DNA from: Nitrospina sp. LS_NOB
GTDB lineage: Bacteria; Nitrospinota; Nitrospinia; Nitrospinales; VA-1
NCBI GenBank assembly: GCA_001542995.1
Contig: LFLA01000021.1
Location: 248,001 to 312,000 of the forward strand
DNA: 64,000 nucleotides
Reading direction: 5' to 3'
Positions 40,311-45,987 of this stretch are shown piece by piece (the first letter of the stretch is position 1; each line of letters begins with the position of its first letter). Below the pieces are notes generated by a model that was not told the DNA's origin, searched no databases, and saw nothing but the letters and a program-made list of their open reading frames with translations. The translations under genes and the position numbers were made by a program.

Positions 40311-40372
40311 GTGGATTTTTTGCCGAAAATATTTTAGAATATAGTATAAATTCCAATTAGGGAGTGGATAGC

Positions 40373-40906
40373 ATGGCTGGACTATACAGAACCGAGACCG
40401 AGATGAGTCTGGGTAATAACGTGATCGTAACGCAAATGACCCAGGCCATTAACTGGGCACGAAAATATTCCTTTTTTATCTATCCCTTCATCACCGCATG
40501 TTGCGGAATGGAGTTCATGTCCGTGGCAGGTCCGAAATACGACCTTGACCGATTTGGTGCTGCATTTCCCCGGTTTTCACCGAGGCAGGCCGACCTGCTC
40601 ATGGTCGTCGGAACCATCAGCCACAAACAGGCTCCTATTCTCACCAAGGTCTATAACCAAATGACCGAACCCAAGTGGGTGGTCGCTTATGGAGTGTGCA
40701 CGGTATCAGGCGGGTTCTACGACAACTACTCCACCGTGATGGGAATTGATACCCTCATCCCAGTCGATGTCTATATTCCGGGATGCCCGCCAAGACCCGA
40801 AATGGTGATCGATGCTCTGATGAAATTGCAGGACAAGGTGCAAGCAGAAACCCTGGAAGACCACGTCAAAGGTCCTGCTCTCGTCACCCCCGCCAGCAAA
40901 CTCTAG
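40373..40906 (+). CDS. nuoB: NADH-quinone oxidoreductase subunit B (NuoB), solitary
   Basis: 177 residues from ATG 40373 with TTAGGGAG eight bases upstream; a GTG at 40364 overlaps that site. The four ligands of cluster N2 are present: C43-C44 (TACCGMEF), C109 (YGVCTVSGG) and C138 (IPGCPPRPE). It is the electron exit to quinone in complex I. No other nuo gene lies beside it (a repeat and a restriction-like island follow), unlike most bacteria where nuoA-N are together. It may serve a complex I encoded elsewhere or be an extra copy. Repeat module A starts directly after its TAG stop. Confidence 0.9.
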   Translation: MAGLYRTETEMSLGNNVIVTQMTQAINWARKYSFFIYPFITACCGMEFMSVAGPKYDLDRFGAAFPRFSPRQADLLMVVGTISHKQAPILTKVYNQMTEPKWVVAYGVCTVSGGFYDNYSTVMGIDTLIPVDVYIPGCPPRPEMVIDALMKLQDKVQAETLEDHVKGPALVTPASKL

Positions 40907-42329: not shown

Positions 42330-43652
42330 TCAAGGCAGCTCACTAAGAATATTTTCCAGCATTCTTAAGGCCCCCGCTTTCTCAACCGGAGTGAGTTTTG
42401 GCGAGTCCGCCATCTTGGCGATTTCGCGGCGTTTCTCTTCAACATACAACTTAAAATCTTCCTCATCCGGCACCACCAGTTTTACTTCTCCATCCTCTCC
42501 GATGAACCGTTGCTTTAAAAACCTAAAATAAATTCCCAGCCGGGTTGCGGAATCCTTCAAGTGCAAATGATAGGTCATGGTCAACAGGGCCTCGCGTTTG
42601 CGGTCGATGCGGTAGCCCAACCGGGTGTTATCGAGTTTACTGAGTTGAATTTCCAAAATTTCAAACGCTTCTTTGAGTGCCAAGGGAGTCAACTCCAACG
42701 GAGGGAGAGGCAGAGTTTTTACCGCCGCGATGTCGAGCAATAACGAAAACGCACGCGTCTGCTCACCCAGATAAGCCGACTTAAAAGGATAGGTCCGGTT
42801 CAGACGCGACACTTCTTTTAACACCGGGTCCAGTTTTTTTATGGCGATTTCTAACTTGCCCAGCGTATCGTCTTCAAAAGGCATTAAAAACCACTGCACC
42901 TCTTTAGGAACGGTCACCTCCTCTTTCACCTCGCGGGCAAAAAACCGGTTGAGGATATCTGGAAATTCAGGAATAAAAAATGCCGTAATCGTGTCGGAAA
43001 AATAAGGAAAATTTAAAATCAGAAATTTGGGATCGGAGCGAATATTCAATCCATACGCTTCCAGTTCATTGGCAATCCCCAAAAACGGCTGGGTCAAATG
43101 CAGGGACTCATGCAGGTGCGTGGCATTTCCGTACACACGGCTGTCTACCAGAATCGCGGCAGGAAAAATTCGGATCGTGTCAAAAGTGGTGTGGGCAAAC
43201 TGACCGGGACGCAACCATTCATCCGACCCGGACTGGATGATAAACTGTTTTAACGATGGCGGGGGAAGATCGGGAAAAATAGAGTTCAGACGATCCAGCG
43301 ATTGCCGCATCCGGTCAATCGACTTGTCCAGCAGCTCGTCCGACTTATGGCACTCCCCGCAGCCATAAGCTTCGAATCCCGGGATAGTAAAAACGGTTGC
43401 TTCGCTTTGCGGCAGGAGCTTTACTTTTTTGGAGGGGCCAATACCTTCTTGAAATTTTTTTGGCAGGTGAAGCTGAATCAAGCGATCCAGTTCGCCCAGG
43501 CCCACCACTGCCCGTGGGGGGGACTTGCTAATTTCGGACAGAAGCTTCTGGTCTGAGTTCGATACTTTTCCTCGAACCTCCACCTGTTCTTCTGCCTTTA
43601 ACGGCGACGTTACGAAAACAACGATAATGGCAATGCAGAATCCTTTTATCAA
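42330..43652 (-). CDS. exported HExxH protein with a CxxCH motif, coupled to the cytochrome gene
   Basis: 440 residues with a signal peptide (FCIAIIVVFVTSPLKA). A CGECH haem-c-type motif lies at 98-102. A zincin-like HESLH motif (181-185) is followed by NELEAYG, whose glutamates (196, 198) could be the third metal ligand. The C-terminal half is helical with no known domain. Its ATG overlaps the stop of the upstream cytochrome gene by four bases, so they are translationally coupled and probably act together in the periplasm. Metallopeptidase activity and covalent haem are inferences from motifs; no family name is offered. Confidence 0.7.
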   Translation of the reverse strand: MIKGFCIAIIVVFVTSPLKAEEQVEVRGKVSNSDQKLLSEISKSPPRAVVGLGELDRLIQLHLPKKFQEGIGPSKKVKLLPQSEATVFTIPGFEAYGCGECHKSDELLDKSIDRMRQSLDRLNSIFPDLPPPSLKQFIIQSGSDEWLRPGQFAHTTFDTIRIFPAAILVDSRVYGNATHLHESLHLTQPFLGIANELEAYGLNIRSDPKFLILNFPYFSDTITAFFIPEFPDILNRFFAREVKEEVTVPKEVQWFLMPFEDDTLGKLEIAIKKLDPVLKEVSRLNRTYPFKSAYLGEQTRAFSLLLDIAAVKTLPLPPLELTPLALKEAFEILEIQLSKLDNTRLGYRIDRKREALLTMTYHLHLKDSATRLGIYFRFLKQRFIGEDGEVKLVVPDEEDFKLYVEEKRREIAKMADSPKLTPVEKAGALRMLENILSELP

Positions 43653-45367
43653 GGTTTCGGCTTCTTAACGTTGAAGCGTTGCCAGACGCTGATCACCTTG
43701 CGTCCGTTCCTGTCTTCCTTAACCCCATCCCAGACCGCGAAGGCTACCAGGGCCGGGTCAATGCGTTGGGCAAAGTCCACATCCCATTTACCGGTTTTTA
43801 GCATATCGCGGAGAAAAACCACGGTCCAGACACCGTCCTTCCATTCGCCAGCACCTTCCACATTCTGGTTTTCAGGAGGTTGCGGCGTGACCGTGCCAAA
43901 CCCTTCGGCGTTCAGCTCTTCAACTGGATTATCTCCTGTCGTATTAACACGAGAGAAAGTCTCAGCAATAATATCGCCAAAAATCAACGCGTCCATATCC
44001 ACTCCGCCGCCAGCATATTCCAGATCATCTTCGGCTTCGAGCGCTTCTTCCAGTCCGGCTTTCCAATGCCAGATATTTACCGGTTTGTTGCGGTTACCCA
44101 TGCCAAAAAACGGTTCATTATGCCCATGAGTGTGAAGCGTCACCGCCCCCAACGCAAATTGCACCGCCACTCCATCGCGGAAGTTATCCGAACGCAGTTC
44201 GGAAAACGCGTCATGAGTCGGGTCGTTCCACTGCAAACGCACTGCCAGCTGTTCGCCGTTATTCACTGAAGACACATTGATAAATTCCACGGCATCACGC
44301 CTCGCCGCTAACGGACGCAATACCAGGTTTGTTGTGGCAACCCCTTCCCACACCGGACTATAAGGATCGGTGCTCAGTTCCACTCCTACAGGAAGTGAAT
44401 AAAGATCCGTTTCAAATTCTGCTTCTTTAAATTCCTTCACCAAATTTGAACCAATATAATGCACCAAAGCCCAACGGTCTTTTTCGGGAACGTGGAGGTA
44501 GGAACCCATAGGCGTTCCATCCAGTCCAGCCGTGATGGTTCTGAATAGGTCTTCCGGCTTGTGCCCACTCTTGAAATAATGGGGGTTGGTGATGTCATGC
44601 ACAAACACTGCATGCTTCCAGGCGTCTATGAGCGATTCGGCCAGCTCACCATCCCCCTTTAAAGACTCACCGTGACAGCGGAAGCATTTTAATTCCTTAA
44701 AAAGTTTTTTGCCTCGGGCCACCAGCTCCGGCGAAGATTCAAGGGGTTTGGCAACCACTATTTTTTCACCCTGCGGTTCGTTTTTGAATCGCGGGGAAAA
44801 GTTTTTAATGTGATTGATCAAAGCCCATGTGTCTTGGGGGCTTAACGCATCTCCCCAGGCGGGCATGGATGTGCCGGGAACACCGCTTATGATGGTGCGG
44901 TATAAATCTTCATCGCGAGGAAGAGTACCCGTCGGGGTGGAGCGGAATTTAAAAATTCCTTCTCTAAAATCTCTCGGCCAGGGATATAAATATTCAACCG
45001 CTATGCCGCCCCCATTGCCATCTTTTCCATGGCAGAACACACACATATGCATATAAATGTTGCGGCCGCGAGCCAGAAGGCTTTTGGAGTCCATATCTTC
45101 AGGCTTGGACAGGTCTGGCTGATCATGAGATCCCCGGGTGCGGAATAAACTGTCACCTTCTCCATGTTGCATGGCACCGTGATCGCCGTGGTCCATAGGT
45201 TCATCAGTCCGGTATTCCCCTCCGGGCGCGGAGTGATCCATCGCTCCATGGTCCATTGCGCCGTCACCGTGATCCATTTTGTGTTCCTGCGCAATCGCCA
45301 ACGAAGCGTACAAACCCGCCAACACCAGTAAGGCTAATCCTGATTGGAAAAATTGTTTCATATTCAT
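43649..45367 (-). CDS. diheme cytochrome c fused to an ethylbenzene-dehydrogenase-type heme-b domain (NxrC-like)
   Basis: 572 residues. Signal peptide (residues 1-26), then a His/Met/Asp-rich stretch with repeated MDHG (31-70). Two cytochrome c domains follow: CVFCH at 109-113 with likely axial M168, and CFRCH at 228-232 with likely M287. From about 300 to the end is an EB_dh/DMSO-reductase gamma-like domain that would bind heme b (DPYSPVWEGVATTNLVLRPL, AVRLQWNDPTHDA, DGVAVQFALG). Domains of this kind occur in gamma subunits of molybdenum enzymes, including proposed nitrite oxidoreductase gamma subunits; the fusion with c-type hemes would link such an enzyme to terminal oxidases. No nxrAB genes lie in this window, so the role is inferred. 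Confidence 0.78.
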   Translation of the reverse strand: MNMKQFFQSGLALLVLAGLYASLAIAQEHKMDHGDGAMDHGAMDHSAPGGEYRTDEPMDHGDHGAMQHGEGDSLFRTRGSHDQPDLSKPEDMDSKSLLARGRNIYMHMCVFCHGKDGNGGGIAVEYLYPWPRDFREGIFKFRSTPTGTLPRDEDLYRTIISGVPGTSMPAWGDALSPQDTWALINHIKNFSPRFKNEPQGEKIVVAKPLESSPELVARGKKLFKELKCFRCHGESLKGDGELAESLIDAWKHAVFVHDITNPHYFKSGHKPEDLFRTITAGLDGTPMGSYLHVPEKDRWALVHYIGSNLVKEFKEAEFETDLYSLPVGVELSTDPYSPVWEGVATTNLVLRPLAARRDAVEFINVSSVNNGEQLAVRLQWNDPTHDAFSELRSDNFRDGVAVQFALGAVTLHTHGHNEPFFGMGNRNKPVNIWHWKAGLEEALEAEDDLEYAGGGVDMDALIFGDIIAETFSRVNTTGDNPVEELNAEGFGTVTPQPPENQNVEGAGEWKDGVWTVVFLRDMLKTGKWDVDFAQRIDPALVAFAVWDGVKEDRNGRKVISVWQRFNVKKPKP

Positions 45368-45462: not shown

Positions 45463-45482
45463 CTGGCCTCGCGCCTAGTGGT
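45463..45482. repeat. repeat module A supplying the DUF1566 stop codon
   Basis: Minus strand: CCACTAGGCGCGAGGCC, a variant of CCACTCGGCGTGGGGCC. The C-to-A change gives the TAG stop of the DUF1566 gene at 45475-45477. Confidence 0.55.
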
Positions 45483-45951
45483 GGACCATTTTGACGCCTT
45501 GTTCCAGATCTGCCAGATCTTTCAGGTTAAAATAGTTTTCTTTATGGCCCAGGCCAAAATACCAGGCATGGTCCAGTCCACGCTCGTCCCCGGTCCAAAT
45601 ATAATAACTGCCTCCGCTTTCAAACTCAGGGGGAAGCCCAAGGGTTTCCTCATCCTTGCTTTTAATCTTTCCTGAAGATACCCATAAACCGTTCAGTTCT
45701 TTCAGGGTGGGCAGCCGCCAACCATCGTTTCCCGCAAACTTTTCCAAATTTTTTCTGGAGATATACTCCAACGCCTCATACCAGTTGAGTCCCTTTTTCA
45801 ACTCATGAAAAGAATCGTCTTTTTGCCAGACCAGACCGGTATTCGAATCCGTTATGGTGCCATTCTGGTTGTCGACAAAACCCGCAACCGGAGCAACGTT
45901 GAGAAAAAAAACAAGGGAGATTGCTGAAACAACATTTGAAATAGCTGACAT
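45475..45951 (-). CDS. exported DUF1566 domain protein
   Basis: 158 residues from ATG 45951 (AAGGGACG five bases upstream); an upstream ATG at 45987 would add 12 charged residues before the signal (SNVVSAISLVFFLNVAPVAG). The rest is a DUF1566/Lcl-type fold: NGTITDSNTGLVWQKDD, NWYEALEYISR, NDGWRLPTLKELNGLW and YIWTGDER. Such proteins are secreted or surface proteins resembling C-type lectins. The final HH and stop come from a repeat module. Confidence 0.82.
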   Translation of the reverse strand: MSAISNVVSAISLVFFLNVAPVAGFVDNQNGTITDSNTGLVWQKDDSFHELKKGLNWYEALEYISRKNLEKFAGNDGWRLPTLKELNGLWVSSGKIKSKDEETLGLPPEFESGGSYYIWTGDERGLDHAWYFGLGHKENYFNLKDLADLEQGVKMVHH

Positions 45952-45987
45952 GTGTTCGTCCCTTTTTGCGATTGAGCGATTACCCAT

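What the first reader, a model, noticed from the sequence alone, without database searches (positions are those of the whole stretch)
43649..45367. Diheme cytochrome c fused to a heme-b gamma-type domain, a candidate nitrite oxidoreductase electron exit
Two CxxCH domains with plausible Met ligands (M168, M287) precede an EB_dh-like heme-b domain. Separate gamma subunits of molybdenum enzymes carry only heme b; a fusion gives a direct b-to-c electron path in the periplasm. In a Nitrospina-like cell this would fit the nitrite oxidoreductase gamma subunit or a homologous enzyme.
Basis: partly seen in the sequence, partly recalled or inferred. Interest (0 to 1): 0.75.

Follow-up and report, generated by a model that had tools for sequence, protein, structure and literature searches.

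The report
Detached three-heme nitrite-oxidoreductase-type electron-exit subunit
In a marine nitrite-oxidizing bacterium this gene encodes a periplasmic protein with two c-type hemes joined to the heme-b subunit type that drains electrons from nitrite oxidoreductase; close relatives in other bacteria sit beside nitrite-oxidoreductase-like genes, but here it stands alone in its own small gene cluster.

Summary
In detail: 43649..45367(-) encodes a 572-aa Sec-exported protein with two cytochrome c domains and a C-terminal EB_dh gamma domain. Both CxxCH motifs, M168 and M287, and the heme-b ligand pair (M423/K557, matching Kuenenia NXR-C Met155/Lys305) are invariant in 73 aligned fusion sequences. 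The genome has nxrABC, with its own short NxrC, on another contig. The architecture is not new: Lucker et al. 2013 described such proteins in Nitrospina as 'alternative NxrC'.

What I add. (1) The gamma domain falls, with 98/95 support, among fused gammas and Kuenenia NxrC, apart from the cell's own NxrC. (2) In 12 other genomes, beyond the phylum as the search labels them, the fused gene lies beside NxrA-like (mostly 55-61%; two are fragments), usually with NxrB-like (60-67%) and TorD genes. (3) The conserved-cluster 'alt_NxrC1' type has lost the Met/Lys pair; this one has not. (4) Here the gene sits in a conserved Nitrospinales cassette: DUF1566 protein, fusion, and a 440-aa heme-c/HExxH protein with no PDB match. 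(5) Its N-terminal tail is MDHG-rich.

Most likely it is a soluble high-potential b-to-c wire derived from an NXR gamma subunit. That NXR is its electron source is unproven.

The parts
43649..45367 (-). fused diheme cytochrome c / heme-b gamma (EB_dh) protein, 572 aa
45290..45367 (-). Sec signal peptide (about residues 1-26); M3 may be the true start
   Evidence: single hydrophobic stretch 7-25; orthologs mostly align from M3
45080..45286 (-). Met/His-rich MDHG tail (residues 28-96)
   Evidence: 7 motifs vs 1.1 expected by shuffling; 39 of 48 orthologs have 3 or more, 0 of 31 of the C3 paralog type
44807..45076 (-). heme c domain 1 (98-187): CVFCH 109-113 (45029-45043), distal M168 (44864-44866)
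44447..44722 (-). heme c domain 2 (216-307): CFRCH 228-232 (44672-44686), distal M287 (44507-44509)
43697..44353 (-). heme b gamma domain (339-557): M423 (44099-44101) and K557 (43697-43699) = Kuenenia Met155/Lys305
44120..44134 (-). HTHGH (412-416) just before the heme-b Met; H412 and H416 invariant in this type and the C3 paralog type, absent in the NxrC/ClrC/EbdC compared
42330..43652 (-). 440-aa exported monoheme (CGECH 98-102, 43347-43361) and HESLH (181-185, 43098-43112) protein; start overlaps the fusion's end by 4 nt; no Pfam family, no PDB match to its pLDDT 89.7 model
45475..45987 (-). DUF1566/Lcl_C exported protein, 170 aa, upstream in the same direction and syntenic in relatives

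Best explanation
It is a soluble periplasmic three-heme wire: a detached member of the fused gamma subunits that drain NxrAB-type molybdenum enzymes. Electrons enter at the Met/Lys heme b and pass within one chain to two His/Met hemes c, then to soluble c-type carriers or an oxidase. Supported: domains, ligands, export signal, phylogenetic place among NXR-type gammas, adjacency of the fused gene to NxrA-like genes in other genomes. Inferred: that heme b here takes electrons from this cell's NXR (as an alternative gamma or a partner of NxrC), the direction of flow, and the final acceptor.
For: nxrABC is present and NxrA is the only type II DMSO-reductase alpha among the molybdopterin enzymes found. 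Heme-b ligands intact in this protein and in every standalone NxrC/ClrC/EbdC compared. Gamma-domain clade with the fused gammas and Kuenenia NXR-C, 98/95. 12 genomes outside Nitrospinota, plus G021 inside the family, carry the fusion beside an NxrA-like gene; those alphas group with own NxrA to the exclusion of alphas that have standalone gammas (100). With our own protein as query the three best hits beyond the phylum are three of these loci.
Against: The nxr operon has its own NxrC whose gamma domain is not sister to this one (p-AU 0.017). The cassette is not linked to nxrAB in the complete genomes G017 and G037. NXR occurs without it in G022. Its conserved neighbours are not NXR genes. The C24 paralog pairs with MsrP, so the module is not NXR-only. 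The diheme halves of the NxrA-linked fusions and of the Nitrospinales fusions do not join in the tree, though joining is not rejected (p-AU 0.104).
Confidence: 0.5

Rival explanations
1. Redox partner of its own operon: the fusion exchanges electrons with the co-encoded 440-aa monoheme/HExxH protein, an unknown periplasmic enzyme, with the DUF1566 protein as accessory. NXR is not involved directly.
For: The 440-aa gene overlaps the fusion by 4 nt in the window and adjoins it in most relatives; it was found only in Nitrospinales (55 of 77 Nitrospinota genomes); heme and HExxH residues are invariant. The paralog operon fusion-FGE-MsrP has a parallel layout with a catalytic partner.
Against: In G037 the 440-aa gene lies about 0.65 Mb from the fusion. 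No catalytic activity is known or predicted for the 440-aa protein. Co-absence in MAGs is confounded by adjacency.
Confidence: 0.3
2. A free-standing electron-buffering cytochrome, with the heme-b domain kept but without a dedicated enzyme partner, moving electrons among periplasmic carriers and oxidases.
For: The diheme half resembles Kustc0457 and the diheme part of a cbb3 subunit II in rhizobial relatives. The genome encodes four further diheme or triheme gamma-like proteins in different operons.
Against: The conserved cassette and invariant Met/Lys pair argue for a specific input; in many relatives elsewhere the fused gene sits beside an enzyme.
Confidence: 0.15
3. Copper-linked role: the MDHG tail binds copper and the protein serves cuproprotein loading or copper-dependent electron transfer.
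For: Tail present in most orthologs and absent in the paralogs. MDHG-type repeats resemble known periplasmic copper-binding tails (own knowledge).
Against: Two of 48 orthologs lack the motifs; no copper gene in the cassette; the tail has low model confidence.
Confidence: 0.05

Closest known systems
alt_NxrC proteins of Nitrospina gracilis (Lucker 2013, PMC3578206) and alt_NxrC_2 of Nitrospira moscoviensis (PMC6606698)
   Same: [quoted passage not shown] homologs also noted in Nitrohelix and Nitronauta (PMC8026999)
   Different: alt_NxrC1 is membrane-bound and lies in the bd-like-oxidase cluster. The genome's counterpart (L046) has Met in place of the heme-b Lys, and relatives have N/K, N/R, G/R, M/H or H/H. 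This protein is soluble, keeps Met/Lys and lies in a different conserved cassette. Which N. gracilis copy is its ortholog could not be checked (supplement not available).
NXR-C of Kuenenia stuttgartiensis (7b04_C, PMC8387239)
   Same: gamma fold and Met/Lys heme-b ligands; nearest gamma in the trees apart from the fused ones
   Different: no c-type hemes; encoded with nxrAB
EbdC (2ivf_C) and ClrC
   Same: heme-b gamma fold and ligands
   Different: standalone gamma; ClrC has a separate small c-type cytochrome gene next to it
Kustc0457 (6h5l_B), diheme partner of the HAO-like Kustc0458
   Same: diheme half, phmmer 3.5e-45, TMt 0.84
   Different: no gamma domain; different enzyme partner

Membership tests
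Type II DMSO-reductase heme-b gamma subunit (PF09459 / TIGR03477) | EB_dh domain over the curated cut-off | tested here: met
   99.7 bits vs 33.3
Type II DMSO-reductase heme-b gamma subunit (PF09459 / TIGR03477) | Over the TIGR03477 cut-off | tested here: not met
   128.2 vs 169.85 bits; the cell's own operon NxrC also falls short at 133.5, so the model is narrow
Type II DMSO-reductase heme-b gamma subunit (PF09459 / TIGR03477) | Met and Lys heme-b ligands | tested here: met
   M423/K557 aligned to Kuenenia Met155/Lys305
Type II DMSO-reductase heme-b gamma subunit (PF09459 / TIGR03477) | Encoded with alpha and beta subunits | tested here: not met
   nxrAB is on another contig with its own nxrC; met in homologs of 12 other genomes and in G021
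NXR gamma subunit (NxrC) of this cell | Part of the purified NXR complex | not testable with these tools
   needs protein work
NXR gamma subunit (NxrC) of this cell | One clade with the operon NxrC of Nitrospinales | tested here: not met
   p-AU 0.017
alt_NxrC (Lucker 2013) | 1-3 heme c motifs plus DMSO-reductase-like heme-b domain, outside the nxr operon | tested here: met
   definition
alt_NxrC1 type of the conserved bd-like-oxidase cluster | Lies beside bd-like oxidase and the two cytochromes, with transmembrane helices | tested here: not met
   that gene is L046:8689-10419; ours has only a signal peptide and other neighbours

The most novel reading that the evidence does not exclude
A three-gene periplasmic redox system specific to Nitrospinales, in which a heme-c/HExxH metalloprotein with no PDB match in fold search is wired through a former NXR gamma subunit; and, more broadly, a widespread group of NxrAB-like enzymes whose gamma subunit is a three-heme fusion that hands electrons straight to c-type carriers.
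Probability: 0.3. Interest if true: 0.72.

Novelty: new member of a known kind. Interest (0 to 1): 0.52.

Why it matters
How electrons leave periplasmic nitrite oxidoreductase is an open point for the marine bacteria that make much of the ocean's nitrate: the Kuenenia structure ends at heme b, and papers name several candidate NxrC proteins without assigning roles. The data here separate the candidates. This protein keeps the heme-b ligands and belongs to the NXR gamma lineage; the better-known alt_NxrC1 type has lost them. The NxrA-linked fused operons give concrete systems in which a built-in b-to-c exit can be purified and tested.

Tried and rejected
PF01794 search for MsrQ in the own genome: none (side issue). 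Fold search and PDB profile search with the 440-aa protein: no match. The idea that all fusions arose once is neither shown nor rejected (p-AU 0.286 gamma; 0.104 diheme). Close linkage of the cassette to nxrA in G005 (same contig, about 10 kb) was judged chance, since complete genomes show none. Searches of the open library for published fused NXR gammas in other phyla found no description, but that library is incomplete. One search was an unneeded fetch; one search was a report sent in a wrong format.

Full report
Observation. The ORF 43649..45367(-) encodes 572 aa. Pfam finds two cytochrome c domains and a C-terminal EB_dh domain, all far above cut-off. In an alignment of 73 fusion sequences (orthologs and the C3 paralog type) the two CxxCH motifs, M168 and M287, M423 and K557 are invariant. 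M423 and K557 align with Met155 and Lys305, the heme-b ligands in the Kuenenia NXR-C structure. A predicted structure (pLDDT 73.9) matches the Kuenenia diheme protein Kustc0457, NXR-C and EbdC in separate parts; none of the listed PDB matches spans the whole protein. Only a signal peptide is hydrophobic, so the protein should be soluble in the periplasm.

Genome setting. The window lies in a 2.65-Mb genome, 98.8% complete, with seven EB_dh genes. nxrA, nxrB and a 328-aa NxrC form one operon on contig C10. The molybdopterin search found four alpha-type proteins: NxrA, two NuoG-like and one FdhF/YdeP-like, so NxrA is the only type II enzyme found. The cluster conserved between anammox, Nitrospira and Nitrospina (bd-like oxidase, two cytochromes, alt_NxrC1) is at L046, not here.

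Prior description. Lucker et al. 2013 reported in N. gracilis an alternative NxrC with two c-type hemes and three more with 1-3 heme c sites plus the heme-b domain, two of them periplasmic. A Nitrospira homolog is transcribed. A later paper found homologs of all N. gracilis NxrC candidates in two more Nitrospinae and left their role open. So the architecture is known; the function is not.

Separating the candidates. The alt_NxrC1 type forms its own clade (99/96; 100/98) and has degenerate heme-b ligands: M/M in this genome, and N/K, N/R, G/R, M/H or H/H in relatives. The present protein, its C3 and C24 paralogs and every standalone NxrC, ClrC and EbdC compared keep Met/Lys. The gamma domain of this group falls with Kuenenia NXR-C and the NxrA-linked fused gammas (98/95), and a clade with the cell's own NxrC is rejected (p-AU 0.017). 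Branches are long and inner support is uneven.

The NxrA link. A family member, G021, carries nxrA-like, nxrB-like, torD and a fusion in a row. With that fusion as query in 387 genomes, 14 hits labelled outside the class and phylum were fetched by sequence score, without regard to neighbours. Twelve lie beside an NxrA-like gene (55-61% to own NxrA where it is full length; only fragments in L213 and L215). NxrB-like (60-67%) is also seen in ten of the twelve and TorD in eight; the others are cut by contig ends or, in L217, hidden by overlapping ORFs. One further contig ends right after the fusion and one is of the alt_NxrC1 type. The query was itself NxrA-linked, so as a control our own protein was searched in the same genomes: the three best hits beyond the phylum are three of the same linked loci. 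The heme-b Met and Lys are present in all twelve linked fusions, and the NxrA partners read at full length carry the CxPN[D/C]TH motif, mostly with the Asn/Asp pair that matches Kuenenia Asn70/Asp71. Own NxrA groups with these alphas, while alphas that have standalone gammas fall outside (100). G165 (L213) has both kinds side by side.

The cassette here. The gene order DUF1566 protein, fusion, 440-aa protein is kept in most relatives, with exceptions such as G037. Of 55 order-level genomes 48 have this ortholog (counted by hand); the 440-aa protein was found in 55 of 77 Nitrospinota genomes, all of them Nitrospinales. It carries an invariant heme c motif and HExxH followed by NELEAY; its model is confident (pLDDT 89.7) yet has no PDB match below E 0.2. 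The fusion's tail is MDHG-rich in 39 of 48 orthologs and in none of 31 C3-type paralogs. NXR occurs without this ortholog in G022, so it is not essential to nitrite oxidation across the order.

Mechanism. All three hemes have ligand sets typical of high potential, and in Kuenenia electrons leave NXR from the corresponding heme b. A fused chain would carry them directly to c-type carriers. That this happens with this cell's NXR is inference (0.5). The main rival is service to the co-encoded 440-aa protein (0.3). The C24 paralog, which heads a fusion-FGE-MsrP operon in a genome without a detectable MsrQ domain, shows that the module can be paired with other enzymes.

Limits. The trees rest on about 235-275 columns. 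No complex, redox or expression data were available. Ortholog counts come from MAGs, where gene loss and contig breaks cannot be told apart.

Noticed in passing
L042:5863-9218 (G000:C24:51863-55218) and L198-L204: The C24 paralog of the fusion heads a conserved operon fusion - FGE-sulfatase protein - MsrP (NCBIfam PRK05363.1, 389.8 bits over cut-off 207). No Ferric_reduct (MsrQ) domain was found in the genome, so the fused cytochrome may replace MsrQ as MsrP's redox partner.
   Followed up: partly
L046:8689-10419 and L148, L149, L151, L152: The alt_NxrC1 type, proposed in the literature as an NXR gamma, has lost the Met/Lys heme-b pair; two relatives have His/His instead, which could be a bis-His heme.
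   Followed up: partly
L213 (G165): Two Mo-enzyme operons lie side by side: NXR-type (NxrB 67% to own) with a fused gamma, and a divergent one (NxrA 40%, NxrB 47%) with a standalone gamma.
   Followed up: partly
L150:8750-10333: A diheme c domain of the same type is fused to two PDZ-like repeats instead of a gamma domain in a genome (G056) without NxrA.
   Followed up: no
L043:6988-11817: The C3 paralog is followed by an NHL-repeat protein and preceded by a conserved 157-aa protein; a monoheme cytochrome lies nearby.
   Followed up: no
L149:6211-7881: A diheme/gamma-like protein carries a run of about nine CNPCAKNA repeats inserted in the gamma domain.
   Followed up: no
window 40364-40906(+): A nuoB-like gene without other Nuo genes among the ORFs listed around it is syntenic next to the cassette in many relatives.
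   Followed up: no
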